Part shown: positions 9,363 through 30,319 of the stretch, piece by piece
How the letters are laid out: each line of letters begins with the position of its first letter
Numbering within the stretch: position 1 is the first letter of the stretch
Virus record (IMG/VR): IMGVR_UViG_3300005600_000064
Coordinates: 1-31,362 of that record
Strand: one strand, 5' to 3'
Source of the DNA: a virus
DNA length: 31,362 bases
The notes under the pieces: model-generated
Database searches by the model: none
Told to the model about the DNA's origin: nothing
Seen by the model: the letters and a program-made list of their open reading frames with translations, nothing else
Translations under genes and position numbers: made by a program

Positions 9363-9776
9363 TTACACAGCCTCGAACAGGCGGGCGCTATAGTTCAGAC
9401 GTCCGCGATAGAGGCTGCCTGCTTCACTGAACTGGATAACCACGCTGGCACTCTGTAGCGTGATATCCACAAGCTCAAATCCCGGCACATCTGGCTTCGC
9501 ACCGGCCACAAGGCCGTCAACAAGCGCCATCAGCTCCTTGGCTTCCATCTGGCTGGGCTCCGCGGACCAGACAGTGATATCAAAACTGATTGTAGCCCCG
9601 TCCCGGCCCTTGACGCCCGTGTCCCGAAGCTGCGTTTCGCCGAACGCCACATAGGGCGGACGGGTGCCGAACGGCGGTTCGTCATAAATGCCTGTCAGGC
9701 GGGCCTTGAGGCCAGCGTCAGCTGACAGCAGGGCGAAGACGGCCTGCTGAAGCTGGTGCGCAGCAAATGCTGTCAT
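9363..9776 (-). CDS. Tail terminator/completion protein (DUF3168, GTA gp8-like)
   Basis: This 137-residue protein matches the DUF3168 pattern: 'LQQAVFALLSADAGLKARL', then 'IYDEPPFGTRPPYVAFGE' and 'DGATISFDITVWS'. These proteins cap the tail tube and join it to the head. It follows the head-tail adaptor gene in the standard gp6-gp7-gp8 order. In most relatives the tail tube gene follows at once; here a plus-strand insertion separates them. Confidence 0.88.
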   Translation of the reverse strand: MTAFAAHQLQQAVFALLSADAGLKARLTGIYDEPPFGTRPPYVAFGETQLRDTGVKGRDGATISFDITVWSAEPSQMEAKELMALVDGLVAGAKPDVPGFELVDITLQSASVVIQFSEAGSLYRGRLNYSARLFEAV

Positions 9777-9808
9777 GGGTATTTCCTTGGTGCTGATTGA
9801 ATTGGCTT

Positions 9809-12159: not shown

Positions 12160-15100
12160 CTAAACAGCAGTACCTGTCGCGTCCACCCACTGGCTGCCGT
12201 CAGACCTGATGGGTTTGCCAAGAGTGGTGTCGAACATGCTTGCCCCAGCACCAGCTGTAGCGGCGGGTGGGCGATTGGCCGTGATGTCGGCCATGCCCTT
12301 GATGTAGCTGGAGGCAATAATCTCGCCCGTCACTTCAAGGCCGCTCATGGCCTTGACAGTATTATCACCATAGACCCGAAGGGCGTTCGAGCCGGTACCG
12401 AAGCTCATGAAATCATCTGTCGGCCCGGTATCAAAGGAGACGAATATATTGAACACGCTGTCGACATTCAGGTCAGCCGTTCTATCAAAGGACAGCATGG
12501 TCGCGACCGGTTGTTCGATAGTGACCTGGCCGTAATGTGTCGCTGCCTTGGTGAGACGGTCGAGTCTCAAGATAGTTGAAAGCGAGCCGTCGCCGGTGTG
12601 GGTATCGAACGAAAAGCCGCCCGATGAGGTGTAACTCATCCGACCCACCGACGCCCCGGCGTGCCAAAGCTCGAACCACGGGTTCAACGCGCCGATAATC
12701 CGAGCGCTGCTGGCGAACGCGACCTTGTTGCCCAGATCGTCGCGCGCACCACTGGTGGTGTTGTAAATCGCGCCCGAGAAGACAGCATCCTTGGTGATGC
12801 CGTCGACGACAATCGCGCTATTGTTGATATCAAGGGCACCCCAAGTCGCGGCATCCCAGTCATAAGCGCCGATCCGGTTCACACCGCCGCTGATATCCAT
12901 AAAGGTGACACGCCCACCGATGTTTGCGACTGCAGCCCTAGACTGAATTCCCTGTGCTCCGACAATCTGACCACCAAAGCTCGCTAGCCCTATAGTGGAA
13001 ATGGACCCCAAATTAGCACTGCTCGAGGTTTCAAAGCCGCCAAACGTATAGAGCCGCCCCGTATCACCACCCAGAGACATAAGCGCTTCCTCCAGGTGAT
13101 TTTCCCAGATGAACCCCTGCTGCGCCCCATTTATGGCCCGGAACCTTACATGATGCGAGGTACGGCCATCCAAAGACGCGCACGCATCCCCGCCTGACAA
13201 TGACTTTCCAATCCCGGCAGTGGCTACGGTGATACCCCAATATGGGTTTCCAGTATCCCACAAGAAGAGGCCGTAATCCGACCCGCCGTCAACACCACCC
13301 ATAACGCTTAGCATCGTGCCGGATTTCGCAACTAGTTTGTCTGATAAGGTTACTTCGCTTCGACTATGATCCCGGTACAGCCATGGAGCGCTACCGGCTC
13401 GGAAAACCGTATCAAAAGCTGAAGCCCCGGCTTCTCCGTAGCACAGGATATTTGCGCCGTATCCTCCGGCATTGGTGCCCCCGCCAAATACTACTGCTCC
13501 AGCGGGGTTGAGTGCGCCAATACCACTGGAGTCCACCTTGAGGTTGTGGACAAAAAGGTCCGCTACGAAAGTTGCGGGGCCGTCAACGGTCAGGATATTC
13601 ACGCCCGTAACATTTCGGGCGTTCATGTCGATATTGACATACATGTCCAGCGCCGTCGCGTTCAGGAACATTCGACCCACGCCTTCAGTGGCCCACCCAA
13701 GCGTACCGGCAGCGGCCTGGTACATCTTTACATCCGTCCCTCCGGCGAAGATTGCGCCTTTTGTGTAAAGGTCTCCCGTGTCGGCGGTCAGGGACATCAG
13801 CATCATTTCCGCACTATTCTCCCAGCCAAAAAACCGCGTTGCGCCGTTTGTAATGCGGTGCCTGATACCCAAACCGGCCCGACCATCAAGCGAAGTCGCT
13901 GCCGTTTCATCGCTCAACGATTTCAGTGCGCCAGATGATGCCATATACGCGCCGTCTGTAGTCGCGTCTGTGTCCCAGAAAAAGATGCCGCGACCGCTGC
14001 CGCCATCAACCTTATTCTGAACGCTAATTTTTGCACCGCCGTCCACCGTGAGTTTGCCCGTGCCATTCGCAATCGTCAGGCCGAGGCCTTGAGTGTTAAA
14101 CAACTCAAGAGGCATTGAGCTTTGCGACTGGACCCGGAAGCTGGCGGAAAGTGCGCCTAGCGCACCTTTAGAGGTGCCGCTGTTCGTCTGGAAATAGGTA
14201 TAGTAATTATTGCCTGTACCGCCGATCCTTGTGTCGGTTGTCCCTTGGACGTGGAAGTCCCCAATGGGAATAACGCCAATTCCCAGTTTACTTGCGAAGG
14301 TGGCATTCTGGCTAGGGTCCCAGCTAACGGCCAGAGTGTTGTTGGTGTAAATACCAAACACATTCGCATCGACCGCGCCCGCCCGGACATCATAATCATT
14401 GACGCCTGTGGAGCCCTTGAAAGCAATTTGCGAGCTAAGACTGGCCACATTAATAAGTGCCGCAACGGTGGCGGAGCCTGACGCTTCTGTCACTTCAAGC
14501 ATACGTGTAACAGGGACTGCCCCAATCCCGACAGGGCCGTTCATGGTGATTGCTCCGGTGCTGCTTGCCGACAACCAGTTAATCCCGTTGGTCCAGAACG
14601 TCTGTGATCCATTCAAAGCATTCACAAACGCCATCTGCGTTGTACCGCCGGAAGTGTACCCGACGTAGCCGGAACGCGTGGTTGGTGTGGCTGTGCGTGC
14701 GTAGAACCCCATATAGGCATGGTCCTGCGAACCGGGCTTTACAGTCAGGCCTTCAGCACCAACATTTGTGGATAGTACACCCGCAAAGAACCCTGCGCCT
14801 GTGAAAGTGGCCTTGCCCGTTTCGAGAAGCATTTCGCCTTGACTACCGCCTACATCAAAGCGTAGTCCGCCCCCGGCCACACCAAGGCCCACAATCGCGT
14901 TAGGTACTACAGCCAAGCCGTCCCACCCGTTGAAGTTCATCGCGAAGCCCTGCGGCCCGCCTTCCTGAACCCCGCCAATAAAACTTGAACCATTCGAAAC
15001 AATCGAGCCCGAGAAGGTTGCGGATTTGTTCGAATTAAGCGTCAGCGCAAGCTCCATGGGGTCGGCACTAATTTGGCTTGGGTGAACATAGAAGTTCAAG

Positions 15101-15753
15101 CCGATCTGGTCGTTGTCATTGCTTTGCTGAACCGCCGCGATTGCCGCGCGAGCGCTTGACCCCTCTGAGCTACCCGATGGGGTCCAGCCGATAGCGCCAT
15201 AAACGAGGCCGTTTGCAGAGGTAACGCCGCTTGATGCGATCTTTATGGCGACGCCGGTGTCTGCGCCGGTCGTGGCAAAGCCGGCCAACACGCTGTTCGA
15301 TGCGATTTGACCACCGACCATCAGATCACCCGTGAATTCCCCGGCACCCGCAAACACACCACCATCTTTCAGAAGCACGCCATCCGCCGTCACGCCAGCG
15401 TCCGGCGTCACCTCGCGGATGACATCTGCCTCATGGGTGGGGGACAAGAGGAAATCTGCCGTAGCGGCACAATAGACACGCGCGTTGCCTGACAGGTTAA
15501 TCGCTGTTGCACCAACGTGCGCATACGCGCCGTCCACCAGCGTTTCAGCCACTTCCGTGCGCGCGAGCGTCATGACGTCCACAAGTGTGCCGGTGCCGAT
15601 CTCATAATTGTCGCCATCCTCGATCACATAAATGACGCCATCGCCTGGTGTGAAGGCATCGGAGAAACCGATATGACCCGGCAGCGCGCCTGCGAGCGTG
15701 ATGTCACCGGTGCCGGTGGTGGATGTGAGTTCGCGAACCCGGTTTGCCAGCAT
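12160..15753 (-). CDS. Very long phage fibre protein
   Basis: The 1197-residue product has an N-terminal domain ('LANRVRELTSTTGTGDITLA', then 'GDGVIYVIEDGDNYEIG') widely shared by phage fibres. A very long beta/Gly/Ser/Thr-rich shaft follows, then a C-terminal 'FDTTLGKPIRSDGSQWVDA' motif common at fibre ends. Two shaft segments of about 90 residues are clearly related, encoded near 13741-14019 and 13030-13302; both contain 'DGGS..G.F.WDT', 'SLDGR', 'WEN' and 'DTG.LYT'. The start at 15753 has an AGGGA site and is preferred to an ATG 12 codons upstream. Its place directly after the capsid gene, not after the tail-tip gene, is unusual and could mean a capsid-borne fibre. Confidence 0.85.
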   Translation of the reverse strand: MLANRVRELTSTTGTGDITLAGALPGHIGFSDAFTPGDGVIYVIEDGDNYEIGTGTLVDVMTLARTEVAETLVDGAYAHVGATAINLSGNARVYCAATADFLLSPTHEADVIREVTPDAGVTADGVLLKDGGVFAGAGEFTGDLMVGGQIASNSVLAGFATTGADTGVAIKIASSGVTSANGLVYGAIGWTPSGSSEGSSARAAIAAVQQSNDNDQIGLNFYVHPSQISADPMELALTLNSNKSATFSGSIVSNGSSFIGGVQEGGPQGFAMNFNGWDGLAVVPNAIVGLGVAGGGLRFDVGGSQGEMLLETGKATFTGAGFFAGVLSTNVGAEGLTVKPGSQDHAYMGFYARTATPTTRSGYVGYTSGGTTQMAFVNALNGSQTFWTNGINWLSASSTGAITMNGPVGIGAVPVTRMLEVTEASGSATVAALINVASLSSQIAFKGSTGVNDYDVRAGAVDANVFGIYTNNTLAVSWDPSQNATFASKLGIGVIPIGDFHVQGTTDTRIGGTGNNYYTYFQTNSGTSKGALGALSASFRVQSQSSMPLELFNTQGLGLTIANGTGKLTVDGGAKISVQNKVDGGSGRGIFFWDTDATTDGAYMASSGALKSLSDETAATSLDGRAGLGIRHRITNGATRFFGWENSAEMMLMSLTADTGDLYTKGAIFAGGTDVKMYQAAAGTLGWATEGVGRMFLNATALDMYVNIDMNARNVTGVNILTVDGPATFVADLFVHNLKVDSSGIGALNPAGAVVFGGGTNAGGYGANILCYGEAGASAFDTVFRAGSAPWLYRDHSRSEVTLSDKLVAKSGTMLSVMGGVDGGSDYGLFLWDTGNPYWGITVATAGIGKSLSGGDACASLDGRTSHHVRFRAINGAQQGFIWENHLEEALMSLGGDTGRLYTFGGFETSSSANLGSISTIGLASFGGQIVGAQGIQSRAAVANIGGRVTFMDISGGVNRIGAYDWDAATWGALDINNSAIVVDGITKDAVFSGAIYNTTSGARDDLGNKVAFASSARIIGALNPWFELWHAGASVGRMSYTSSGGFSFDTHTGDGSLSTILRLDRLTKAATHYGQVTIEQPVATMLSFDRTADLNVDSVFNIFVSFDTGPTDDFMSFGTGSNALRVYGDNTVKAMSGLEVTGEIIASSYIKGMADITANRPPAATAGAGASMFDTTLGKPIRSDGSQWVDATGTAV
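13030..14019 (-). repeat. Internal duplication in fibre shaft
   Basis: Two copies (about 13741-14019 and 13030-13302) share the order of motifs DGGS, WDT, SLDGR, a xWEN motif and an MSL.xDTGxLYT motif at equal spacing. They are diverged in sequence, so the duplication is old. Boundaries are approximate. Confidence 0.7.
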
Positions 15754-15781
15754 GAGAAAATCCCTGATCAAAGATGGAGAA

Positions 15782-15815
15782 GAAAACAAGAAAGGGCGGC
15801 GCCGAAGCCCCGCCC
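15782..15815 (-). terminator. Rho-independent terminator after capsid gene
   Basis: On the minus strand a 9-bp stem with one mismatch closes a TTCG loop (15794-15815) and is followed by TTTCTTGTTTTC. It lies between the capsid stop and the fibre start, so it would lower fibre transcripts relative to capsid. Confidence 0.7.
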
Positions 15816-15840: not shown

Positions 15841-16968
15841 TTACGCCAGGCCGAACTTCAGAAGCTTGAGCGCATGGTCATTGACCAGCGCACCGCCCAC
15901 GCGGCGGGTAGCATAGAAATGCACATACGGCTTGTTGGTGTATGGGTCGCGGAGCACGCGGGTGCCGGTGCGTTCCACCAGCGTATAGGCGCGCTCAAAA
16001 TTGCCGAAGGCGATCGAGAAGCTGTCGGACGCCATATCAGGCATGTCTTCAACTTCAAGAACGGGATAGCCCAGAAGCGTGTCCGGCTGGCCTTCCGCAA
16101 GGCCGGCGCGCCAGATGAAGTTGCCGTCTGCATCCTTGAACTTGCGGACCGTCGCCAGCGTTTTGGAATTCATCACAAAACGCGCACCTTGGCGGTACCG
16201 GGCAGAGAGCGCATGCACCAGATCAATCAGGATATCCGCTGGGTTGGACGCTGGGAAGGCAGCATCCACACCGGTCGGGATATACTGGACCTCGCCAAAG
16301 GTGCGGGTGTCATCATCGCTGGTGGACGGCGTGTAGGTCAGGAAGCCTTTCGGCATGTTGGTGCCCGTGCCGTTCACAATGGCCGCACCTTCCTGTGCCG
16401 CGAATTCCTCCGCCACCTCCTCATTTAGCCAGGCTTCGGCGTCAAACTGCATGTCATCAAGCGCGCGCTGGGTTGCGGCGGCGTTGGCATACAGCTCACT
16501 CGGCGTGATCAGCACCTGCTCAAGGCTTGGCGTGCCTGTCTCAGCCCGGGCGTCCGCTTCGCCCACCCAACCGGATGTGGCACCGCCGGTGTTCACCAGA
16601 CGCTTATAGTCTGACGTCTCGATCGTCTTGACCTTCACGACAGAGCGCAGCGGCGACAGGATGCGAAGCTGCTTTTCAATCTCGCTGTCGATCACGGTTG
16701 GCACGGCATAGCCGCCGTCACCGCCAGTGGAGGTGGAAAGCGCCTTGGCTTCAAGCGCCTTCAGGGCGTCGGTGTCACCCTTCTGGATGAAACCGCTAAA
16801 GAAAGCAGATTTGTGTTCGGTTACATCAGCACCACCGAAATCATAAGCCGCACCTGGGCGCGCCATCTTGGTTTCCAGCATATCCAGCCGGTCTTTCATG
16901 GCCATCAGGCCGCTTTCCGCCGTGTCGGTATAGTCGTCAATGGCGGCTTTCAGATCTGTCATTTCCAT
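15841..16968 (-). CDS. Major capsid protein (HK97 fold, GTA gp5-like)
   Basis: The 375-residue protein has a coiled, charged N-terminal scaffold-like segment (residues 1-~75), a possible processing region near 'EAKALSTSTGGDGGYAVP', and typical HK97 capsid features: 'IEKQLRILSPLRSVVKV', 'WVGEADARAETGTPSLEQV', 'YANAAATQRALDD' and 'FAAQEGAAIVNGTGTNMPKG'. The C-terminal motif 'PYVHFYATRRVGGALVNDHA' is also family-typical. The first ATG (16968) is used, with an AAGGACA site; a second ATG lies two codons in. Terminator-like hairpins lie on both sides of the gene, so it may have its own transcription unit. Confidence 0.95.
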   Translation of the reverse strand: MEMTDLKAAIDDYTDTAESGLMAMKDRLDMLETKMARPGAAYDFGGADVTEHKSAFFSGFIQKGDTDALKALEAKALSTSTGGDGGYAVPTVIDSEIEKQLRILSPLRSVVKVKTIETSDYKRLVNTGGATSGWVGEADARAETGTPSLEQVLITPSELYANAAATQRALDDMQFDAEAWLNEEVAEEFAAQEGAAIVNGTGTNMPKGFLTYTPSTSDDDTRTFGEVQYIPTGVDAAFPASNPADILIDLVHALSARYRQGARFVMNSKTLATVRKFKDADGNFIWRAGLAEGQPDTLLGYPVLEVEDMPDMASDSFSIAFGNFERAYTLVERTGTRVLRDPYTNKPYVHFYATRRVGGALVNDHALKLLKFGLA

Positions 16969-17079: not shown

Positions 17080-17116
17080 AGAAAAAAGGGCCGCAAGCAT
17101 CCCGCTTCCAGCCCTT
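17080..17116 (-). terminator. Possible rho-independent terminator before capsid gene
   Basis: On the minus strand AAGGGC...GCCCTT encloses an inner GAAGC/GCTT stem and is followed by TTTTTTCTT. It follows the small exported-protein gene (stop at 17153) and precedes the capsid gene; it may isolate the inserted region from the capsid. Confidence 0.5.
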
Positions 17117-17152
17117 CAGAATTCTATGTCAAACGATTGGTGACGGTGCTTA

Positions 17153-17464
17153 TCAGGTGCACTGCCAGGAGTGGCTCACAGGTTTTATCTCCAGTGTGGT
17201 GCCATTATAGACATGATCGCCGCCGAGCGTTTTGTCACCGTTAAGCTTCCGCCCGCCCTTGACCAACTCAAATTTCTTCATCTCAAGATTGAACTTTTCA
17301 GAAACCATTCGTTTCACTGAACAAACAGATGCCTCATCAAGGTCACCAGTCTTAATTCTTTCCTTCAGCTCGCCAAAGGCCACATAGACAAAGTCGCTCG
17401 AGCCCGCAGCCACAGGGCCTGCCATCACCGCAGCAAGTGCCGTCGTCAAAACCAGTCTTTTCAT
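17153..17464 (-). CDS. Small exported protein with ubiquitin-like half
   Basis: The 103-residue protein has a signal peptide (about residues 1-20, ending AGPVAAG). Its second half aligns with ubiquitin without gaps over about 46 residues: 'VKRMVSEKFNL' with 'VKAKIQDKEGI', then L, GG(R/K), L, TL, V and 'TTLEI' at the same spacings as ubiquitin's L, AGK, L, TL, I and 'STLHL'. I aligned this by eye. The C-terminus (SHSWQCT) lacks a Gly-Gly, so conjugation is not expected. Two cysteines in the mature part could form a disulfide. It has an AAGGA site, and its upstream region contains a degenerate LexA-type site shared with the divergent gene at 17607. A beta-grasp fold is inferred; function unknown. 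Confidence 0.65.
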   Translation of the reverse strand: MKRLVLTTALAAVMAGPVAAGSSDFVYVAFGELKERIKTGDLDEASVCSVKRMVSEKFNLEMKKFELVKGGRKLNGDKTLGGDHVYNGTTLEIKPVSHSWQCT

Positions 17465-17517: not shown

Positions 17518-17532
17518 GAATTGTAAATGAAC
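17518..17532. promoter_or_regulatory. Degenerate LexA-type site
   Basis: GAATTGTAAATGAAC is GAAC-N7-GAAC with one mismatch (on the minus strand GTTC-N7-ATTC). It lies 14 bases from the perfect box at 17547, between two divergent genes, so it could be a second operator serving the minus-strand gene. Confidence 0.35.
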
Positions 17533-17546
17533 AACCTAAGCGATAT

Positions 17547-17561
17547 GTTCACTTTTTGTTC
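17547..17561 (+). promoter_or_regulatory. LexA (SOS) box, copy 1
   Basis: GTTCACTTTTTGTTC is a perfect GTTC-N7-GTTC direct repeat, the operator bound by LexA in alphaproteobacteria. It is 45 bases upstream of the ATG at 17607 and overlaps a possible -10 (TATGTT at 17545). Confidence 0.75.
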
Positions 17562-17606
17562 ATATTGAAAACCGCACCATCCTGCTCAAAAGGAAAGGAC
17601 TCGACC

Positions 17607-18356
17607 ATGCGTTTTATCAGTGGCTTGATTTGCGGCCTTCTGGCATCTGCCAGCATCTTGGCTTTGGCAAATGATGACGAGAGCATTGTGGCGGAAAACT
17701 GGAACCGCGACTGGGACTATCCCTGGTCTTCTGCCGACGGCAATCCCAAGCTGGGCAATGAATCAGTCGTTCCGTTTCCGAGCCCCAATGAAGGCGACGA
17801 TTATCCCTACCTAGATCTAGTGGAAAGCAACCCGCTCCTTGAACTGAGCAGGAATGACATCAAATCTGTATGCATTTTTGGGTATTCTGGCGAGAACACA
17901 CCAATCTTTTCGACAGAAATATTCCTGACCCCGGATGCCCGTCAGCGCGTGGCGGATATCCTTGCCTCAAAAGACGGCGTCGAGGTCGCTTTCCGCTGGC
18001 TCGGAATTGAGGTCAACGCCTTCACCGTAGACGCCCGCAAACTGGAATATTTCAAGGAATTCGCAGACATTTATCCCGGCGCCCTCGATTGGAAGGAAAG
18101 AACATCCTCATTGGAAAATGAAGAGAATTACGCCTACTTGGACTTGGCCGATCTGTCCTTTTCATCCGGCCCGTCGTCCCTTTATATGGGTTATTATATC
18201 ACCAAGATCTTATCCGGCACCAATGAGCTTGAAGCTTGCGAGCATGGCAAGCCCCCTCATGAAATACCGGGCTACACAGAGCATCTTGAACTCTGGACCA
18301 AAACCAAAGAAATGTACGCCAGCGGCAAGATGAAACGTTATGGGTATGACTATTAA
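17607..18356 (+). CDS. Exported protein, SecDF P1-head-like family, paralog 1
   Basis: The 249-residue product has a signal peptide or anchor (residues 1-19, 'RFISGLICGLLASASILALA') and an acidic mature part. A central section 'DIKSVCIFGY', then 'STEIFLTPDARQRVADILAS' and 'VEVAFRWLGIEVNAFTV', matches the pattern of the other two plus-strand paralogs and resembles the SecDF P1 head (strand - helix with R.AD - strand - 'G..V'). A late Cys ('LEACEHG') is conserved in the family. The ATG at 17607 has an AGGAAAGGA site. It is under a LexA-type box, so SOS induction is predicted. It ends 21 bases from the stop of the displaced protease end on the other strand. Confidence 0.75.
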   Translation: MRFISGLICGLLASASILALANDDESIVAENWNRDWDYPWSSADGNPKLGNESVVPFPSPNEGDDYPYLDLVESNPLLELSRNDIKSVCIFGYSGENTPIFSTEIFLTPDARQRVADILASKDGVEVAFRWLGIEVNAFTVDARKLEYFKEFADIYPGALDWKERTSSLENEENYAYLDLADLSFSSGPSSLYMGYYITKILSGTNELEACEHGKPPHEIPGYTEHLELWTKTKEMYASGKMKRYGYDY

Positions 18357-18376
18357 TAGCCCATTATCGCGCCCAC

Positions 18377-18720
18377 TCAATATCTACAGAAACCCGTTGA
18401 GGGATTGATGGCGCCCGACCGCTTCCAAGATGACCAATGCCGGTTCAGGGACAGGCCTATTTTGCTCAGATTTTTCGTCTCACAAAGCAATCGTTGACGT
18501 TTGTACTCTATATTGGCGACCATCTGACTAATCGAACCAGCTTCAGGGGATGCAAACCCCTTGGCCGTGATGGCCTTCGCGCGGGAGCGGGAGAAGCCCT
18601 GTTCCCGCAGGAAGCGCTCAAAGTCACGCGGGGTTTCAAGATTGGCGCCCGCTGATTTCACGGTGGATACGCGGGCAAGTTCATTGGCTGGGAAAGTCAC
18701 GAGGGAAATCTCCATCAATT
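18377..18720 (-). pseudogene. Displaced 3' end of a prohead protease gene, copy 1
   Basis: The frame encodes 'LMEISLVTFPANELARV', then 'LETPRDFERFLREQGFSRSR' and 'AKAITAKGF', the same residues as positions ~139-184 of the intact protease, followed by a different, ordinary-looking C-terminus ending in FCRY. The catalytic His and Ser regions are absent, so it is not a functional protease. Homology to the intact gene starts abruptly at about 18720; upstream DNA is the SOS-box region of the next plus-strand gene. Its linker residues (STVKSAGAN) match copy 2 and not the intact gene (TGVKSTDYQD), so it comes from another protease allele. Confidence 0.8.
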
Positions 18721-18772
18721 CTTTTTCGCAATTGCGTAGAAACAACCATTGCGGTACGTTCACTTTTTGTTC
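18629..18772. repeat. Long direct repeat, copy A (protease junction plus SOS box)
   Basis: About 145 bases are nearly identical to 19757-19904. The repeat spans the protease fragment, the unrelated segment with TTGCGTAGAAACAACCATTG and the LexA-type box. It shows that whole cassettes were duplicated or share an origin. Confidence 0.85.
18758..18772 (+). promoter_or_regulatory. LexA (SOS) box, copy 2
   Basis: GTTCACTTTTTGTTC, identical to copy 1, overlaps a possible promoter TTGCGT-N17-TACGTT (18732-18760) and lies 56 bases before the ATG at 18829. Confidence 0.75.
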
Positions 18773-18828
18773 ATTTGCCGTATGCAACGGTGTCGGCATT
18801 GATCATTTGCTACTCGGGGGGGAAGTCT

Positions 18829-19491
18829 ATGTGGAAATATCTGGCCGGCATGGCATCAGGAATTATTCTCCTGCCCTTGGCCCTGTATCTGTTTTTGTCT
18901 CCGAAAGCATTCTGGCAATCCTATCATTACATCACGGACGACATCAGCCTCTATTGGGATGGTTCTGATGTCATGAGCACCTATACCTATGCCTTGGGTG
19001 AAGATTACAGCGACGACCCCAGCAGGTTCGAAACCGACACCCTCCAGTTGATGGAAAACACCCCGATCGAAACGCTGGAAGCAACAGATATCAAGCGTGT
19101 CTGCCTCGTCCCCACTTGGAACGGGGAAGACTTTTTAGCCAATTATTATGTCCAGGTGTTTCTCGCACCCGAGGCCAAAACCCGGATTGCTGATCGATTG
19201 GCCACAAAAGCGGGTAAACAGTTTTCTTTCCGTCTCAAAGGTACGGAACTATCCAGTTTCATCTTGGCCGCAGACCTGCTGCAGGGCTTTGCCAATGACA
19301 AATTGCCCGACAATGTAAACAGCGATTTCGAATTCACGGTACCGGAAGGTGCCACAATAGCGGGGCTTTATTATGCTCACACCCTTGCAGGCGGCAAGGA
19401 TCTGGAGATGTGTGAGCCTACAGACAGCCTTGATATGATCCCCTACTATCGGGACTTTGTGGAAACCATCAAACGCTCCCGCCAGGAATAG
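18829..19491 (+). CDS. Membrane-anchored protein, SecDF P1-head-like family, paralog 2
   Basis: The 220-residue protein has an N-terminal membrane anchor ('MASGIILLPLALYLFL', about residues 7-22) and a large outside domain. The section 'DIKRVCLVP', 'YYVQVFLAPEAKTRIADRLA' and 'QFSFRLKGTELSSFILAADL' aligns with paralog 1, and the SecDF P1-head pattern is clearest here, including a closing 'AGLYYAHTLAGG'-type helix. A late Cys ('EMCEP') is shared. The ATG at 18829 has a GGGGGGAAG site; a TTG start 18 codons upstream overlaps the operator region and is rejected. A LexA-type box predicts SOS control. It ends before a hairpin/pseudoknot-like sequence. Confidence 0.75.
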   Translation: MWKYLAGMASGIILLPLALYLFLSPKAFWQSYHYITDDISLYWDGSDVMSTYTYALGEDYSDDPSRFETDTLQLMENTPIETLEATDIKRVCLVPTWNGEDFLANYYVQVFLAPEAKTRIADRLATKAGKQFSFRLKGTELSSFILAADLLQGFANDKLPDNVNSDFEFTVPEGATIAGLYYAHTLAGGKDLEMCEPTDSLDMIPYYRDFVETIKRSRQE

Positions 19492-19496
19492 GAATT

Positions 19497-19542
19497 TGCC
19501 GCCAATCTCAAGGGTAAAAAACCGTTGGCGGCAGCCCTGAGA
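19497..19542. other. Pseudoknot-like or terminator structure
   Basis: TGCCGCCAA (19497) pairs with TTGGCGGCA (19525), and TCTCAAGGG (19506) pairs with CCCTGAGA (19535) with one bulge. The order stem1, stem2, stem1', stem2' is that of an H-type pseudoknot. It sits between two convergent genes and may act as a shared terminator; no U-run is present. Confidence 0.35.
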
Positions 19543-19546
19543 TATA

Positions 19547-19850
19547 TCAACGAAAAGCGAAGGTCACTTTCACTTCGTCAATCCCGCTTGATTTGCCACG
19601 AATGCTGATTTCCTGCATGCCCTCGGCAATGGCGAATTCGTTTTGGGCACCGTTGCCGTTCGATTGCCACCTTCCGATCTTCGGCCCTGTCGGAGAAACA
19701 TAGTCGACCTCAAGAAACACCGGCCCTTTAAAAGGATAGCGGGAAACGTTCAAAGTCACGCGGGGTTTCAAGACTGGCGCCCGCTGATTTCACGGTGGAT
19801 ACGCGGGCAAGTTCATTGGCTGGGAAAGTCACGAGGGAAATCTCCATCAA
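19547..19850 (-). pseudogene. Displaced protease 3' end, copy 2, with extra domain
   Basis: From about 19850 to 19752 the minus strand encodes 'LMEISLVTFPANELARV' and 'LETPRDFERF' in frame, then the frame closes at 19728. The frame shifted by +1 continues to 19547 as about 70 beta-rich residues ('GPVFLEVDYVSPTGPKIG', 'EISIRGKSSGIDEVKVTFAF'). So the protease fragment and the C-terminal domain are out of frame with each other: either a frameshifted fusion or a fusion point inside the repeat. The catalytic part is missing. The second domain is of a similar style to the 134-residue protein at 22559. Confidence 0.7.
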
Positions 19851-19904
19851 TTCTTTTTCGCAATTGCGTAGAAACAACCATTGCGATACGTTCACTTTTT
19901 GTTC
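19757..19904. repeat. Long direct repeat, copy B
   Basis: Second copy of the ~145-base repeat at 18629-18772, differing at only a few bases. It carries the same protease fragment border and LexA-type box. Confidence 0.85.
19890..19904 (+). promoter_or_regulatory. LexA (SOS) box, copy 3
   Basis: GTTCACTTTTTGTTC again, overlapping TTGCGT-N17-TACGTT, 47 bases before the ATG of a 35-residue membrane peptide at 19952. Confidence 0.75.
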
Positions 19905-19951
19905 GATATGTTTTGGACCAAAGAGCTGAACCAACGTTACGGGGGAATACA

Positions 19952-20059
19952 ATGAAGCACTTTATTCTCCGCTTCCCGGCCGGATGCATTGCCATTGCTG
20001 TGATCATGACTTCTGGCCTGTGGCGATTGGCTCCGGCAAGAAAAATTTGGTGTAAGTAA
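19952..20059 (+). CDS. 35-residue membrane peptide under SOS box
   Basis: ATG at 19952 follows a GGGGGAA site and encodes a basic, single-span peptide ('MKHFILRFPAGCIAIAVIMT' then a Trp/Arg/Lys-rich end). In position it corresponds to the anchor of the paralogous plus-strand proteins, so it may be a truncated relative. It could also be a true small membrane protein: SOS-induced inner-membrane peptides such as SidA of Caulobacter inhibit cell division. The sequence itself does not decide between these. Confidence 0.5.
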   Translation: MKHFILRFPAGCIAIAVIMTSGLWRLAPARKIWCK

Positions 20060-20093
20060 ATATGCTCTGCGGTGCAATTAGAAGGAACCCAAT

Positions 20094-20228
20094 ATGGAGA
20101 AGAAGGACGCCGATAAAAAAGAACTGACCTTTGGCATCGCCCGCGTAAACCCATTCGCCCGGGGCTGGGTGAACGGTGCCATTATCGTCATCATCTATTA
20201 TGAGTTCTTCGCTGACTGCGCCTGCTAG
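20094..20228 (+). CDS. 44-residue membrane peptide, overlaps protease stop
   Basis: ATG at 20094 has a GAAGGAA site and encodes a charged N-terminus (MEKKDADKKELTF) and one membrane segment ('GWVNGAIIVIIYYEFF') ending DCAC. Its TAG overlaps the protease TAG on the other strand: the palindrome CTAG (20225-20228) serves as stop for both genes. It probably forms an operon with the 35-residue peptide gene. No family recognised. Confidence 0.55.
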   Translation: MEKKDADKKELTFGIARVNPFARGWVNGAIIVIIYYEFFADCAC

Positions 20229-21385
20229 GAAACGGAAATTTCAAACCGCTCTTCACGGCGCGGCGCACCATCCATCGGGCGCTGTAAACCGCGGGGTTCT
20301 TGCCCTTTATGGTATGTAAGCGTGTATGAAATTCTTTTATCCACAACCAAACGACCCGCTGCTGTGCGCCAGTCGTCAAGATCAAACGGATTGAAACCAT
20401 CTTCGCTTGGGGTCGCCTTCTCGATCTCGGTCAGGGCCTTAAATTCATTTTGCCACAGCTCAATTTGACGCTGTTCATAGCGGCGACCATTCCAGGCCCA
20501 ATAGGTAATGACACAGTCGAAATAGGCATGCCGGTGCGGCGGTTTTACCTTAAACCGGGTGCGCCCTTTCGGCAGACCTGGGAACAACCAATTATCAGGG
20601 TTTGTCGAAGGACGGTTCAACAGCCCACGGGCAACCCGACCGGGCAGCAATCGCACCACCGCTGCCCCATATCCCTTCACTTCACGTCCTGCTTCACCGA
20701 GACCGGCAGCAATACCGTCCAAAAGCCTCTCGCGAGAGCAAAGGATCTGCGATACAGCCTCCGCGACATCAAGTTCCTTGCCGCCGTATAGCCGACTGCC
20801 ACCAAAACCCTTGGCCGTGATCGCCTTGGCGCGGGACCGGGAGAAGCCATGCGCGCGCAGCATGCGCTCAAAATCGCGCGGGGTTTCAAGGTCTTGATAG
20901 TCGGTGGATTTAACGCCCGTCACCCGCGCCAGCTCATTGGCTGGGAAGGTCACGAGGGAAATCTCCATCAGGTCTGCTTTGGTGATTGTACGGGTGCCGG
21001 TCGCGGCATTGCGGGAGGCTTCGCGGGTCACGAACCCGATCGAAAGCCCATCAAGCGCCCCCATTTTGAGTAACTCATAAGCCTCGCGCCCCCGCCCTTC
21101 CATCGACAGGCGGCCCTTCACATAAAGGCCCTTCTTGTCCTCGCGCACCACATCGAACCGGCCGATGGGTTCCTTGGCGTTATGCTGCCAGAGCAGCGCA
21201 GGCATGCGGCCTTTCAGGCTTTCGCTGAACGCGCCGCGGGATACCACATCGCCGTCCCGGTCCAGGTTGCCAAAAATGGCGCCATATCCTTCGAACGTGC
21301 CGTTCTCACCGCCGGCGTCACCGGCAGCTTTCAGTTCAAGCGGGACAGACGTCACCTCACGGGTCATCGTTTGGCTGGTCGCCAT
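20225..21385 (-). CDS. Prohead protease (HK97 family) with long C-terminal extension
   Basis: The 386-residue protein cleaves the capsid scaffold segment during head maturation. Residues 1-~150 have the family motifs: 'FEGYGAIFGNLDRDGDVV', the catalytic His in 'LLWQHNAKEPIGRF' (about 68) and the catalytic Ser in 'LDGLSIGF' (about 115), with 'MEISLVTFPAN'. The usual protein ends near residue 190-230. Here about 200 further residues follow: a helical part and then a basic, beta-rich domain ('RFKVKPPHRHAYFDCVITYW', 'RISYTLTYH') ending FEISVS. The ATG at 21385 has an AAGGAG site and is preferred to a start seven codons upstream. Two displaced 3' ends of related genes lie downstream. Confidence 0.85.
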   Translation of the reverse strand: MATSQTMTREVTSVPLELKAAGDAGGENGTFEGYGAIFGNLDRDGDVVSRGAFSESLKGRMPALLWQHNAKEPIGRFDVVREDKKGLYVKGRLSMEGRGREAYELLKMGALDGLSIGFVTREASRNAATGTRTITKADLMEISLVTFPANELARVTGVKSTDYQDLETPRDFERMLRAHGFSRSRAKAITAKGFGGSRLYGGKELDVAEAVSQILCSRERLLDGIAAGLGEAGREVKGYGAAVVRLLPGRVARGLLNRPSTNPDNWLFPGLPKGRTRFKVKPPHRHAYFDCVITYWAWNGRRYEQRQIELWQNEFKALTEIEKATPSEDGFNPFDLDDWRTAAGRLVVDKRISYTLTYHKGQEPRGLQRPMDGAPRREERFEISVS

Positions 21386-21500
21386 TTGTTGCTCCTTCTT
21401 GCGCACTGGACAGGCCCTCGGCCTGCTGCTACGACTTTTTGACTGAGAGGCGCCCCAAAGCTGATAATCACAAGGCGCCCTGTTTGCGAGGAAAACTGAA

Positions 21501-21776
21501 ATGTCTGATCAACAACCCCGGATGCCCCACAAGGCAGACCCAACAAGGCTTGCCAAATACCGGGCCTGGCTGTCTGTTGTCGCGCTGCTCGTTGCCGCCA
21601 TTTTCGGCACGCTGGCCATGGGGTCCTTCGCGGCAGGCGAAGGGCTGGCGGGTGAAAACGGCATGGACCATGTTGGCCGCGTCATCATCACCTTCAACAT
21701 GGTGGGCATTGTGCTTTTCGGCTTCGCCGCTGCCGCGCTTTATCTGGCCTGGCGCTTCCGCCCCGGCGGGGATTAG
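21501..21776 (+). CDS. Small two-span membrane protein (unknown)
   Basis: The 91-residue product has two hydrophobic segments ('LSVVALLVAAIFGTLAM' and 'IITFNMVGIVLFGFAAAALY') separated by a Gly-rich loop with an acidic residue. An AGGA site precedes the ATG. It is inserted head to head with the protease gene and in the same direction as the SOS-box gene downstream. No LexA-type box is seen before it. Family not recognised. Confidence 0.65.
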   Translation: MSDQQPRMPHKADPTRLAKYRAWLSVVALLVAAIFGTLAMGSFAAGEGLAGENGMDHVGRVIITFNMVGIVLFGFAAAALYLAWRFRPGGD

Positions 21777-21808
21777 GCGTGAGAATTAGCCCACGCGATC
21801 TTATGCTT

Positions 21809-21816
21809 GCTATAGT
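21809..21816 (+). promoter_or_regulatory. Extended -10 promoter before paralog 3
   Basis: TGCTATAGT at 21808-21816 is an extended -10. The LexA-type box lies 17 bases further, within the expected start of the transcript, where bound LexA would block transcription. Confidence 0.45.
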
Positions 21817-21832
21817 TGTCACGTCGAGATAA

Positions 21833-21847
21833 GTTCTTATTTTGTTC
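21833..21847 (+). promoter_or_regulatory. LexA (SOS) box, copy 4
   Basis: GTTCTTATTTTGTTC keeps the GTTC-N7-GTTC rule with a different spacer, so it is not part of the long repeat. That independent conservation supports function. It is 22 bases before the ATG at 21870. Confidence 0.7.
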
Positions 21848-21869
21848 TCAAAACGGCACGGGGCTCATC

Positions 21870-22550
21870 ATGGGCATCAAACTGTTGGCCAGCTTCCTGA
21901 CGGGGCTCATCCTTGGGCCTCTGGCCCTCTATTTCATCATCCTGCCATTCCCCATCCGCAATGCCATTTATGTCGAATATGAACCCGGCCCCATATCCGG
22001 CGCCGGAGGCGGCATGAACTTCCAATATGGCAGCGAATTCGCCCGCAACCCTGATGGTTCAGCGTTCGAGAAGGGCACCTTCTATCTGATGGCCCCTGAA
22101 GCCCTGGCCCCGACTGGCCTGAGCGAAGTCAAATCCGTCTGTGTGGAAGCCGCGTCATCCCACACGAGCAGGGATGGGCCCGCACAGTTGGATATCGCCC
22201 TCTCCTTCAAGGCTGAGGCAATCCAGCGCTTCACCGAAGCAACTGACCCGCTTACCGACGGCCCACTTTTACTGATGCTGGATGGCTATGTGATTGGCGG
22301 CGCGCCCCAGACCCGGTATCCAGATGGATCACCTGCATGGGATGCAACACTGACCTTTTCACGGCACAATATTGATGCCCTGGCACTGTTCACAGAGGCG
22401 CTTTCCCCCCTTGATCCATTAAAGCCGTGCGACCTGACGCCCTACGGTGTGGAAGACCCCAACACCGTCATCGAGCCCGAAGCTCTGGCCGACTTCAAGG
22501 CCTGGACAAACGCGCACAAGGAGGCATGGAACAACACCCCCTGGTGGTGA
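21870..22550 (+). CDS. Membrane-anchored protein, SecDF P1-head-like family, paralog 3
   Basis: The 226-residue protein has the anchor 'FLTGLILGPLALYFIIL' (about residues 7-24), close to that of paralog 2. Downstream, 'EVKSVCVEA', then 'AQLDIALSFKAEAIQRFTEA' and 'PLLLMLDGYVIGGAP', follow the same order as in paralogs 1 and 2; 'LLMLDGYVI' is particularly like the SecD head ('IVLDG.V'). A late Cys ('LKPCDL') is shared. The start at the ATG next to the anchor is supported by paralog 2. Ends 8 bases from the stop of the convergent gene at 22559. Confidence 0.75.
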   Translation: MGIKLLASFLTGLILGPLALYFIILPFPIRNAIYVEYEPGPISGAGGGMNFQYGSEFARNPDGSAFEKGTFYLMAPEALAPTGLSEVKSVCVEAASSHTSRDGPAQLDIALSFKAEAIQRFTEATDPLTDGPLLLMLDGYVIGGAPQTRYPDGSPAWDATLTFSRHNIDALALFTEALSPLDPLKPCDLTPYGVEDPNTVIEPEALADFKAWTNAHKEAWNNTPWW

Positions 22551-27486: not shown

Positions 27487-30288
27487 CTAGAAGAACTGAA
27501 CCGGGCCGCCCGCCTGCTGGCGGTATTTCAGCACCGATACCGGCAGTTCCACGCCAGGTGCTGCACCAGCAAAACGGATCAGCGCGTCAAAGAAAGACAC
27601 CGTCACATCGCTTGCGACATAATTGCCGCCATAGGTTGGGTTGTTCCAGGGCTTGAGGCCTTTGGTGTAAAGCGCCACCTTGTCCGCAAGTTGATCCTTC
27701 GTCAGGCCTTTGGTGGTGACGATCTGGCCCAGGGCGCCGAAGGCGTTCGCAAGCTTGCCGGGCATTTCCTGCAGGTTCTGGAAGGTCTTGATCACCTGCG
27801 CGGCGTTCGCTGGGCTGGCTGAAATATCGTTCGCCATATCCTGGATCTGGAAGAAGCCGGCGTTCAGGAACTTGTTGACCTGCAGCACCTCAGGCAGCGC
27901 GGTTTCCCAATCGGCCCCGAACAACTGGCCCATGTAGGCGCGCAGATATTTATGGTTCGCCAGCAGCGCCTTGGCCGCACAGTCCACAGCAACTGCATAC
28001 TGGGCGTTCATGGCCGTGCAGAAGGCATCCGCGCTGGATTGATCGAACGACAGCAGCACCTCGAACTCCTCGCCCGGGCCGTTTGCCTTGCCGTAATCAA
28101 TCATGGCTTGCGCGCGGTCCTGAGGTACAAGCTTGATGCCCACGAGACGGGTCAGATAGCTTTGCATCTCTGCCGCCGTGATCTCGCCCTTGTCGGCATC
28201 GCCGCCCTCCATGGAGGTCAGAGTGAACTTCATACCATCAGTGTTTTCATCTGCCGCGCGGTCCATCGCGTAAGTGGACGCCGCGCTGATATCGAAAGTG
28301 CGGGTACCCCACCAACTTTTCTTCACCCGCGTGACATCGGCCGTTGCCACCATCTGAATGCCGGACGGCAGGCGCACCACCGAAACACCGGACTGGGCGG
28401 TGAGCGCGCTGTTGAAGTCCATATTCAGGAAACCGATGGCCGCCGTGTCCGTGCGGGTGTGCTGCCACAGACCTTTGAGCGACCCTTCAAGGAAGGTCAC
28501 CCCATCTGGCAGCGCGGCCAGGCTTGGGTTCAGCCATTCGCGCACCGTGGCGTGCGGCCGGGCCATAAGCGCATTATACTGCTGCTCGGCACCTGCAAGC
28601 GTGTTGGTGCCGTCTGCGGCTGTCGGGCTAAACTGGAATTTGCCAAGCCCGGTGATGAGCGACTTGTTCTCTGTCTGCCGGGCGATGGAGATGGCCAGCA
28701 ATTCGGAAGAATCGTCAGAGATATAGTCCGTTACCTTCTGCAACTGGCCGCGGATATCTTCAATCACGCCAAGGACCTTGTCGGCGAAATTATTGATATC
28801 CTTCAGGTGCAAGAGCTTGGCGATACCCTTTTGCACTTTCGCGTCCAGGCCATTCAGCTCGTTCGTGACCTTGGAGATCAGCTCCTGCTGCGCTTCGGTC
28901 ACGGCGGTGTCCACCTTCGATATCTGGCTGTTGATCTCTGTCCCCGCGCGGGAGACGAGCTCTTCCTTGATCTGGTTTGCAAGACTGGTGAGCGGCGTGC
29001 CCTTGAAAATGCCGACCGCGTCATCGGCAGCGTCGGCGATATAGGTTTCAAGGTCTGTTCCGAAATCCATGACCGTCCAGCCCGCGGGCTTGCCCAGAAG
29101 CTTGCCCAGAAGCGTGTTGAAATCTGTATCCGCGGCGAGTTTCGCCAGGACCGTCTTTTCGATATACTGGCCGGGCAGCAGGGTGTTGAGCTTGGTTTCA
29201 AGCTGCAGGCCCTTGTTGATGGCGGCTTCGGCCTCATCCAGTCCCTTGCCCACGTCGCCGAGCGCTGTCCTGATCGCCGACAGCACATTCTGGCCAAGGG
29301 CCGCAATGCCGACAGACAGGCCGAAGGTAAAGCCCGCTGTCTTGACGCTACTTTCATTCGAATTCAGGTCCACGATCAGCGATGCACCCTGGCGCGTCAC
29401 GCCCATGGTGACATGCTTGCCGTTCACCAGGCTGGCGCTGATGCCGAACTTAAGGTTGCCCACCTTGAAGGGGATGGTGGCGGCAATGTTGCCCCCCGCT
29501 GACATATCGACACCACGCTGAAGCGTGATGGTCTCAAGCGCCACATAGCCGTCCGATACGCCGATGGCCCCGCTGGTGGCCTGAAAGTTGGTGACATCAA
29601 ACCCGATCTGCGTCAGCCCCGCCGTCATGGCCAGCAGCATGGGCACCGCCGCGTCATTGGCGGCATCCACCTTGAAGCCGAAATCAACCGATTCCATGTA
29701 GGAAAACTTGGCCGACGCCCCAAGGCTGAAGACCGAAAAGCTGGCCTGCGCTTCCGCGCCCACGCCGATACGGCCCTGTGCTGTCAGGTGGAAGCTGGTG
29801 CCGGGGATGCTATCGGGTGCTGCGGGTGTATCTGCAGCGTCGACCACAAAGGCCATGCTGCCCGAGGCGCTGAGGTCAAGCGCGAAGGTGGCGAGCTTGA
29901 CAGTAGCCGGCAGCTCTTTTGAAAAATTCCCCACGTTCCATTCGAACGTGCGTTCCGCCAGGCTGCCTTCCGCCACCACACGCACGGGCTTGAACTTATC
30001 GGTGATGTTCTGGATGTCCGCCAGCGGTTTTGCGAATTCCTGCTCTGCCTTGTCCGTGAGTTCAGAGCCGATGGTGGCTTCAAGCTTGGCCTTGATGGCC
30101 GCCGCGTCGCCAGAGATGGCAGTAACGCTGGAGGAGACAGCCTTGACCACGTCAAATAGCGGTTCGGCCGCAACGCCCACGGCGGGGGCCAGCTTGCCGG
30201 CGATCAGCCAGGGGTTGCCGTATGATTTCTGCCAGACCTCGGTTGGGGCGGCGGCGGGAACGGTTCCTTGTTCATCTGGCGGGGTCAT
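27487..30288 (-). CDS. Large protein of unknown function (933 residues)
   Basis: The start at the ATG at 30288 has an AGGAG site; a start ten codons upstream does not. There is no signal peptide. Residues ~1-90 are helical; ~90-340 are beta-rich, with alternating hydrophobic residues ('GRIGVGAEAQASFSVFSLGA', 'GGNIAATIPFKVGNLKFGIS'). Residues ~340-560 are long amphipathic helices with many Leu/Ile heptads ('LDEAEAAINKGLQLETKL', 'INSQISKVDTAVTEAQQEL'), and the rest is mixed. A toxin-like or membrane-acting architecture is conceivable, but no motif shows it. It has its own terminator, so it is a single-gene unit. Confidence 0.75.
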   Translation of the reverse strand: MTPPDEQGTVPAAAPTEVWQKSYGNPWLIAGKLAPAVGVAAEPLFDVVKAVSSSVTAISGDAAAIKAKLEATIGSELTDKAEQEFAKPLADIQNITDKFKPVRVVAEGSLAERTFEWNVGNFSKELPATVKLATFALDLSASGSMAFVVDAADTPAAPDSIPGTSFHLTAQGRIGVGAEAQASFSVFSLGASAKFSYMESVDFGFKVDAANDAAVPMLLAMTAGLTQIGFDVTNFQATSGAIGVSDGYVALETITLQRGVDMSAGGNIAATIPFKVGNLKFGISASLVNGKHVTMGVTRQGASLIVDLNSNESSVKTAGFTFGLSVGIAALGQNVLSAIRTALGDVGKGLDEAEAAINKGLQLETKLNTLLPGQYIEKTVLAKLAADTDFNTLLGKLLGKPAGWTVMDFGTDLETYIADAADDAVGIFKGTPLTSLANQIKEELVSRAGTEINSQISKVDTAVTEAQQELISKVTNELNGLDAKVQKGIAKLLHLKDINNFADKVLGVIEDIRGQLQKVTDYISDDSSELLAISIARQTENKSLITGLGKFQFSPTAADGTNTLAGAEQQYNALMARPHATVREWLNPSLAALPDGVTFLEGSLKGLWQHTRTDTAAIGFLNMDFNSALTAQSGVSVVRLPSGIQMVATADVTRVKKSWWGTRTFDISAASTYAMDRAADENTDGMKFTLTSMEGGDADKGEITAAEMQSYLTRLVGIKLVPQDRAQAMIDYGKANGPGEEFEVLLSFDQSSADAFCTAMNAQYAVAVDCAAKALLANHKYLRAYMGQLFGADWETALPEVLQVNKFLNAGFFQIQDMANDISASPANAAQVIKTFQNLQEMPGKLANAFGALGQIVTTKGLTKDQLADKVALYTKGLKPWNNPTYGGNYVASDVTVSFFDALIRFAGAAPGVELPVSVLKYRQQAGGPVQFF

Positions 30289-30319
30289 GATTTCAGCTCC
30301 TGGATGGTTGCACGACAAA

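What the first reader, a model, noticed from the sequence alone, without database searches (positions are those of the whole stretch)
17153..17464. Exported protein whose second half matches ubiquitin without gaps
About 46 residues align to ubiquitin without gaps by eye, with V-K, K, L, G, L, T-L and T-L at equal positions and conservative I/V/L changes at the other core sites. It has a signal peptide and no Gly-Gly end, so it would be a periplasmic beta-grasp protein, not a conjugated modifier. It is next to the SOS array and the capsid gene. Bacterial ubiquitin-like proteins in phage defence (Bil, CBASS-linked) are cytoplasmic, so an exported one on a phage cluster would be new.
Basis: partly seen in the sequence, partly recalled or inferred. 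Interest (0 to 1): 0.65.

Follow-up and report, generated by a model that had tools for sequence, protein, structure and literature searches.

The report
Exported ubiquitin-fold protein on SOS prophage
A phage-derived gene cluster carried by the marine bacteria Kordiimonadaceae encodes a small protein that is folded like ubiquitin, exported from the cell, probably stapled by two invariant cysteines and placed at a DNA-damage (SOS) promoter; it appears to be a non-conjugated, ubiquitin-shaped envelope or extracellular effector, a kind so far reported in bacteria mainly for a Bacteroides toxin.

Summary
The 103-aa ORF (17153-17464, minus) is a real, conserved gene family. By itself it matches Pfam ubiquitin only weakly (E 0.03). 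I found 18 further copies, nearly all in Kordiimonadaceae prophage-like elements, at most loci directly upstream of the capsid gene. The family profile hits ubiquitins in the PDB. AlphaFold2 with the family alignment gives pLDDT above 90 for most of the mature domain, and that model matches ubiquitin/ISG15 at Z about 13, rmsd 1.4 A over 75 residues. Every member read complete has a signal peptide, no Gly-Gly and two invariant cysteines (Cys48, Cys102 in a C-terminal S-x-Q-C tail). An exact alphaproteobacterial LexA box lies within 200 nt upstream of 15 of 18 element-borne copies, usually shared with a divergent, fast-evolving membrane-anchored protein ("mor"). This family has only about 20% identity to it, two cysteines instead of one, and is phage-borne at SOS boxes. 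Function is inferred: an SOS-induced, non-conjugating envelope or extracellular effector. Toxin versus exclusion factor is undecided.

The parts
17153..17464 (-). Ubl gene: 103-aa exported ubiquitin-fold protein (CDS with stop)
   Evidence: ORF; 18 further copies; dN/dS about 0.1-0.3 between copies
17405..17464 (-). Signal peptide, residues 1-20 (MKRLVLTTALAAVMAGPVAA)
   Evidence: Hydrophobic core and small residues at the cleavage site, present in all complete members; by inspection, no SignalP available
17177..17395 (-). Ubiquitin beta-grasp domain, residues 24-96
   Evidence: AlphaFold2 with the family alignment; Foldseek and VIA-align
17321..17323 (-). Invariant Cys48, at the position of ubiquitin Glu24, start of the helix
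   Evidence: Invariant in A1 and in further copies
17159..17161 (-). Invariant Cys102 in the C-terminal tail motif S-x-Q-C
   Evidence: Invariant in A1 and in further copies
17547..17561 (+). LexA/SOS box GTTCACTTTTTGTTC between the Ubl gene and the divergent morA
   Evidence: the same motif lies upstream of lexA in three Kordiimonadaceae genomes
17607..18356 (+). morA: divergent exported/anchored protein, 249 aa, with the two family cysteines
17085..17117 (-). Terminator-like hairpin plus T run between Ubl and capsid
   Evidence: a hairpin in this slot is also present in relatives without Ubl
15841..16968 (-). HK97-type major capsid protein, directly downstream of the Ubl gene
   Evidence: PF05065 E 2e-88
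18758..18772 (+). Second SOS box
18829..19491 (+). morB: second member of the mor family
19890..19904 (+). Third SOS box, inside a duplicated 166-nt unit
21833..21847 (+). Fourth SOS box
21870..22550 (+). morC: third, divergent mor-like protein with N-terminal membrane segment
   Evidence: shares the two cysteine positions; no significant pairwise score
18377..18799 (-). Duplicated C-terminal fragment of the prohead protease
20225..21388 (-). Prohead protease (S78), other edge of the accessory slot
   Evidence: PF04586 E 1e-31

Best explanation
The gene encodes a secreted, ubiquitin-folded, probably disulfide-stabilised protein that is an accessory (moron-type) gene of a vertically inherited, integrase-less prophage-like element of Kordiimonadaceae. 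It sits in the slot between prohead protease and capsid. SHOWN by computation: the family, the ubiquitin fold, a signal peptide in all complete members, no Gly-Gly, two invariant cysteines, a LexA box at most copies, a divergent membrane-anchored neighbour gene, purifying selection. INFERRED: on DNA damage LexA is cleaved and both the Ubl and the mor proteins are made. The Ubl is exported by Sec, oxidised in the periplasm, and released when the element's holin/endolysin lyses the cell. It cannot act as a conjugated modifier (wrong compartment, no Gly-Gly), so it acts by non-covalent binding or disulfide exchange on an envelope protein of the producer or of neighbouring cells. Most likely roles: an antagonism or exclusion factor, either a BfUbb-like bacteriocin released with the particles (about 0.3) or a receptor/entry-blocking factor protecting producer and progeny (about 0.3).
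For: Homologs at E 1e-25 to 3e-7. A1: invariant C48, F65, L67, G71, L74, Q101, C102 and signal peptides. Profile against PDB gives ubiquitins. AF2 pLDDT 86.5 overall, 78 of 103 residues at 90 or more, the last residues at 91. VIA-align Z 13.1, rmsd 1.4 A over 75 residues; Foldseek 198 hits at E<=1e-3, those listed being mainly ubiquitin-like folds. Exact SOS box within 200 nt of 15 of 18 element-borne copies, against 74 sites in 4.04 Mb of one genome; the same box upstream of lexA in 3 of 3 genomes. Divergent mor neighbour at the element loci read. Capsid in 24 of 29 family genomes, one copy each; early and flanking genes shared; no tyrosine integrase nearby in five genomes. M15 endolysin in the window, GTA-type holin in relatives. 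dN/dS about 0.1-0.3, but two- to tenfold faster amino-acid change than capsid.
Against: No experiment. Secretion beyond the periplasm, LexA binding and the disulfide are not shown. The box in the window is oriented for morA and lies 97 nt upstream of the Ubl start, so it may act mainly on morA (some relatives have a box at -64 to -72 oriented for Ubl; one has both). Ubl and mor do not co-diverge (partial Mantel -0.04, p 0.59), so they may not form a system. About half of the family's genomes lack Ubl.
Confidence: 0.6

Rival explanations
1. BfUbb-like bacteriocin: the exported Ubl is released by SOS-triggered lysis and inhibits related strains through an envelope target; the membrane-anchored mor proteins could be periplasm-facing immunity proteins.
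For: Same anatomy as BfUbb: signal sequence, no Gly-Gly, cysteine at or near the C-terminus (PMC3352274). SOS-associated, with a lysis module in the same element. BfUbb structure matches the model at Z 12.8, rmsd 1.2 A over 73 residues. Fast evolution. mor genes also occur without Ubl, like orphan immunity genes.
Against: Only about 20% identity to BfUbb. This family has a second invariant Cys that BfUbb is not reported to have. BfUbb needs no immunity protein (PMC5705921). No Ubl-mor co-divergence.
Confidence: 0.3
2. Exclusion or receptor-shielding factor: made on induction, it binds a surface or periplasmic receptor or entry channel, so that producer cells and debris do not adsorb progeny particles or competing phages; hypervariable mor proteins do the same at the inner membrane.
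For: Prophage-borne, exported and anchored proteins between structural genes, timed with induction by SOS boxes. Ubl distances follow the capsid (Mantel r 0.51, p 0.0004). mor arrays are strongly diversified.
Against: Exclusion genes are usually expressed in the uninduced lysogen. No similarity to known exclusion proteins.
Confidence: 0.3
3. Envelope or lysis helper: a periplasmic Ubl that binds the peptidoglycan machinery, a chaperone or the M15 endolysin to time lysis.
For: SOS timing; holin and M15 endolysin in the same kind of element.
Against: The gene is far from the lysis genes and absent from about half of the related genomes, most of which keep the element.
Confidence: 0.15
4. Host-derived domesticated gene: a periplasmic Ubl of Kordiimonadaceae captured by the element, with a housekeeping envelope function unrelated to the phage.
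For: One genome carries a Ubl on a contig without the phage genes (L216).
Against: All other copies found lie in the element and most carry SOS boxes; no convincing copies outside the family in about 800 sampled genomes of the class and phylum.
Confidence: 0.1
5. Chance similarity of a short orphan ORF to ubiquitin.
For: Single-sequence statistics are weak; the first direct tblastn scans found no relatives.
Against: Conserved family, purifying selection, family profile and structure.
Confidence: 0.01

Closest known systems
BfUbb of Bacteroides fragilis (ubb; PDB 8hm2 and related entries)
   Same: Ubiquitin fold, N-terminal signal sequence, secreted, no C-terminal Gly-Gly, cysteine at the end (PMC3352274, PMC5705921; Z 12.8)
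   Different: BfUbb is 63% identical to human ubiquitin and thought to be acquired by horizontal transfer, closest to an entomopoxvirus gene (PMC3352274); this family has about 14-20% identity to ubiquitins, a second invariant Cys48, sits in a prophage-like element at SOS boxes, and its toxicity is untested
Eukaryotic ubiquitin / ISG15 / NEDD8 / HUB1
   Same: Complete beta-grasp fold (Z about 13, rmsd 1.4 A); family profile hits
   Different: Exported, no Gly-Gly; the position of Ile44 is mostly K/R/T
Bacterial Bil and CBASS conjugation systems
   Same: Ubiquitin-like proteins or chemistry in bacteria in a phage context
   Different: Those are cytoplasmic conjugation systems (CBASS: PMC10097602; Bil from my own knowledge); here the protein is exported, without Gly-Gly, without a PADLOC match
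YukD-type ubiquitin-like proteins (PF08817)
   Same: Small non-conjugated bacterial Ubl; weak Pfam match in 2 of 13 members
   Different: YukD is a cytosolic component of a WXG100-type secretion system (own knowledge); no such system beside this gene
Alphaproteobacterial gene transfer agents (RcGTA-like)
   Same: TerL-portal-protease-capsid-tail order, short tape measure, GTA-gp10-type protein, GTA-type holin in relatives, vertical inheritance
   Different: GTA megatron model far below cut-off (28.7 against 800 bits); S24-type repressor module in relatives; SOS accessory array

Membership tests
Ubiquitin-like beta-grasp fold | beta-beta-alpha-beta-beta ubiquitin topology | tested here: met
   AF2 with alignment, DSSP E24-30 E33-40 H47-58 E65-69 E90-95; Foldseek and VIA-align Z 13.1
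Ubiquitin-like beta-grasp fold | Sequence relation to the ubiquitin family | tested here: met
   Profile against PDB; PF00240 in 8 of 13 members, best 9.4e-5; the window protein alone stays below the Pfam gathering score
Conjugated ubiquitin-like modifier | C-terminal Gly-Gly (or exposed Gly) in a cytoplasmic protein | tested here: not met
   Tails end in QC, QCT, QCR, QCTR or QCQGM and all complete members have signal peptides
Conjugated ubiquitin-like modifier | Neighbouring E1/E2/JAB genes | tested here: not met
   None among Pfam hits of window proteins or of neighbours scanned in relatives; genome-wide search not done
BfUbb-type secreted ubiquitin toxin | Signal sequence, no Gly-Gly, cysteine at the C-terminus | tested here: met
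   against PMC3352274
BfUbb-type secreted ubiquitin toxin | High identity to eukaryotic ubiquitin (63% to human) | tested here: not met
   About 14-20% identity in structural alignments to ubiquitin and BfUbb
BfUbb-type secreted ubiquitin toxin | Kills related strains | not testable with these tools
   Needs purified protein and sensitive strains
LexA/SOS regulon of Alphaproteobacteria | GTTC-N7-GTTC in the promoter region | tested here: met
   15 of 18 element-borne copies; the same box upstream of lexA in 3 genomes
LexA/SOS regulon of Alphaproteobacteria | LexA binding and induction by DNA damage | not testable with these tools
   Needs an in vitro binding assay and mitomycin C expression data
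RcGTA-like gene transfer agent | GTA baseplate megatron (g15) protein | tested here: not met
   NF048004 28.7 bits against cut-off 800, partial
RcGTA-like gene transfer agent | Vertical inheritance, no integrase | tested here: met
   One capsid copy in 24 of 29 genomes, shared flanks, no tyrosine integrase within the fetched 40 kb in five genomes; serine recombinases not searched

The most novel reading that the evidence does not exclude
The element carries an SOS-induced, ubiquitin-folded secreted weapon or shield that arose independently of eukaryotic ubiquitin and of BfUbb, released together with phage-like particles, with a hypervariable array of membrane-anchored two-cysteine mor proteins as its counterpart: a new phage-borne class of antagonism built on a ubiquitin scaffold.
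Probability: 0.25. Interest if true: 0.85.

Novelty: new variant of a known kind. Interest (0 to 1): 0.62.

Why it matters
Non-conjugated, exported ubiquitin-fold proteins in bacteria have been described mainly for one Bacteroides toxin thought to be borrowed from eukaryotic viruses. A second family, far from eukaryotic ubiquitin in sequence, carried by a phage-derived element at SOS boxes and marked by invariant cysteines, would show that bacteria and phages repeatedly use the ubiquitin fold as an extracellular binding module. The gene is small, single-copy and present in cultured environmental Kordiimonas strains, so its function can be tested directly.

Tried and rejected
Direct tblastn scans with the window protein found no relatives in viral contigs, genome contigs, phages or plasmids; relatives appeared only through the capsid loci and an unfiltered phmmer of their ORFs. 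A single-sequence AF2 model was poor (pLDDT 55) and was replaced. PHROG, NCBIfam and PADLOC gave no meaningful match for the Ubl. A structural (virion) role is unlikely because all complete members have a signal peptide. Toxin-immunity pairing of Ubl and mor was tested by co-divergence and not supported, though mor distances are near saturation. The Ubl-capsid terminator as proof of an autonomous unit was weakened, since relatives without Ubl also have a hairpin there. RcGTA membership was rejected at the megatron test. mor has no recognisable fold by sequence. The weak hits in G140, G304 and G011:C58 were set aside as partial matches. The literature library held no paper joining gene transfer agents with Kordiimonas or Kordiimonadales.

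Full report
1. The observation. The ORF lies where stated: 17153-17464, minus strand, 103 aa, starting MKRLVLTTALAAVMAGPVAA and ending ...SHSWQCT. Alone it matches ubiquitin without gaps over residues 46-92, but the statistics are weak (PF00240 E=0.03, below the gathering score). Direct tblastn scans of viral contigs, genome contigs, phages and plasmids found no relatives. On this evidence alone chance could not be excluded.

2. A real family. The window is a 31-kb IMG/VR record. Its closest capsid relatives in genomes come from Kordiimonadales. An unfiltered phmmer of all ORFs in the capsid loci found 14 homologs of the small protein, E 1e-25 to 3e-7, most of them just upstream of the capsid gene in the same orientation. 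Whole-genome searches found one copy in each of 14 of 29 genomes of the family, and no convincing copy outside that family among 196, 385 and 398 genomes sampled from the order, class and phylum. With four contigs not counted there, 19 copies in all were examined, the window's included. Between complete copies dN/dS is about 0.1-0.3, with two to ten times more amino-acid change than in the capsid: a functional, fast-evolving gene.

3. The fold. Alignment A1 (13 members) has invariant C48, F65, L67, G71, L74, Q101 and C102. As a profile it finds ubiquitin, ISG15 and viral ubiquitin in the PDB (E 1e-5 to 1e-3 for the singly matched chains), and 8 of 13 members match Pfam ubiquitin one by one. 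AlphaFold2 with this alignment gives mean pLDDT 86.5, with 78 residues at 90 or more and the low part essentially confined to the signal peptide. Foldseek finds 198 PDB matches at E<=1e-3, those listed being mainly ubiquitin-like folds; VIA-align gives Z 13.1, rmsd 1.4 A over 75 residues for ISG15 and Z 12.8, rmsd 1.2 A over 73 for BfUbb.

4. What marks the family. Every complete copy has an N-terminal signal peptide, most with an A-x-A type cleavage site (by inspection). No member ends in Gly-Gly; tails end in S-x-Q-C or a close variant with at most three further residues. In the complete copies the mature domain holds exactly two cysteines, both invariant (the third one counted for G008 lies in its longer signal peptide). 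In an oxidising periplasm a disulfide is the natural reading, and AF2's confidence in the tail (about 91) fits an ordered tail, but the Cys-Cys distance was not available to me and an intermolecular bond is not excluded. The position of ubiquitin's Ile44 is mostly K, R or T, so the usual ubiquitin recognition patch is not kept (inspection).

5. Where it sits. The window holds an HK97-type structural cluster on the minus strand: TerS, TerL, portal, protease, capsid, connector, tail and M15 endolysin. Between protease and capsid, and between portal and protease, are plus-strand accessory genes. Four exact GTTC-N7-GTTC boxes occur in the window, all in this stretch (expected 0.64). The same box lies upstream of lexA in three Kordiimonadaceae genomes, so it is very likely the LexA site there. 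It lies within 200 nt upstream of 15 of 18 element-borne Ubl genes (74 sites in 4.04 Mb of one genome). The genomes are related, so these are not 15 independent events, but the boxes fall into two position classes (about -64 to -72 oriented to Ubl, about -89 to -194 oriented to the divergent gene), and one copy has both.

6. The neighbour genes. Across the box from Ubl is a divergent gene, here called mor: an N-terminal membrane segment, two invariant cysteines, otherwise about 15-30% identity. It has no match in Pfam, PHROGs or the PDB. The window has three mor-like genes. They alternate with duplicated fragments of the protease gene's C-terminal part, a 166-nt unit being 97% identical between two places. 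Ubl and adjacent mor do not co-diverge once capsid distance is allowed for (partial Mantel -0.04, p 0.59), whereas Ubl follows the capsid (r 0.51, p 0.0004). Ubl therefore seems to be inherited with the element while mor genes are reshuffled.

7. The element. Capsid genes occur once in 24 of 29 family genomes. Relatives share upstream genes (S24/HTH-type repressor, DUF1376, DUF6362, PAS) and, in seven genomes, a downstream phosphopantetheinyl transferase gene. No tyrosine integrase lies in the fetched region of five genomes. It is thus probably a vertically inherited, integrase-less prophage-like element with GTA-like features (GTA-type holin in relatives), but the GTA megatron model fails clearly, so I do not file it as an RcGTA. 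The early module seen in relatives was not found in the window, whose right end (26.3-31.3 kb) encodes other proteins.

8. How it probably works. Shown: fold (predicted at high confidence), export signal, cysteines, SOS-box association, element linkage, purifying selection. Inferred: induction by DNA damage, export and oxidation, release by the element's lysis genes, action by binding or disulfide exchange at an envelope target. Conjugation is argued against by anatomy. The closest functional precedent is BfUbb: signal sequence, no Gly-Gly, C-terminal cysteine (PMC3352274), a secreted protein that inhibits other B. fragilis strains without a known immunity protein (PMC5705921). A toxin role here is plausible but untested; an exclusion or shielding role fits the prophage setting equally well.

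9. Novelty. Exported bacterial ubiquitin-like proteins exist, so the kind is known. This is a new variant: far from BfUbb in sequence, two invariant cysteines, phage-borne, at SOS boxes, in a lineage where I found no earlier report.

Noticed in passing
window 17519-22550: Array of SOS boxes, divergent mor genes and duplicated protease C-terminal fragments (166-nt unit at 18607-18772 and 19739-19904, 97% identical); resembles displaced C-terminal cassettes that could exchange the variable end of the prohead protease by recombination.
   Followed up: partly
L202-L220 (related genomes): mor family: hypervariable, membrane-anchored, two invariant cysteines, SOS boxes, no known relatives; also present in elements without Ubl (e.g. 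L211, L220).
   Followed up: partly
L216:9844-10140: Orphan Ubl in a MAG, on a different contig from the phage genes, no SOS box or mor beside it, but with the same signal peptide, SVCSLK and ...SKQC.
   Followed up: partly
L085 about 9470-9785 (G002): Ubl reading frame broken by a frameshift near the first beta-strand; decay or assembly error.
   Followed up: no
L208:9967-18228 and L209:11777-16780: Giant ORFs (2753 and 1667 aa) lie between Ubl and capsid in two relatives.
   Followed up: no
L201 (G050:C1:998395-998688): Remnant of the capsid gene with a stop codon, suggesting decay of the element in one species.
   Followed up: no
window 12160-15789: Large 1209-aa ORF directly after the capsid gene, without Pfam match, conserved at this place in 11 of 15 relatives compared; likely fibre or decoration protein.
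   Followed up: no
window 27487-30318: 943-aa ORF without clear family at the right end of the window, next to a permease-like gene.
   Followed up: no
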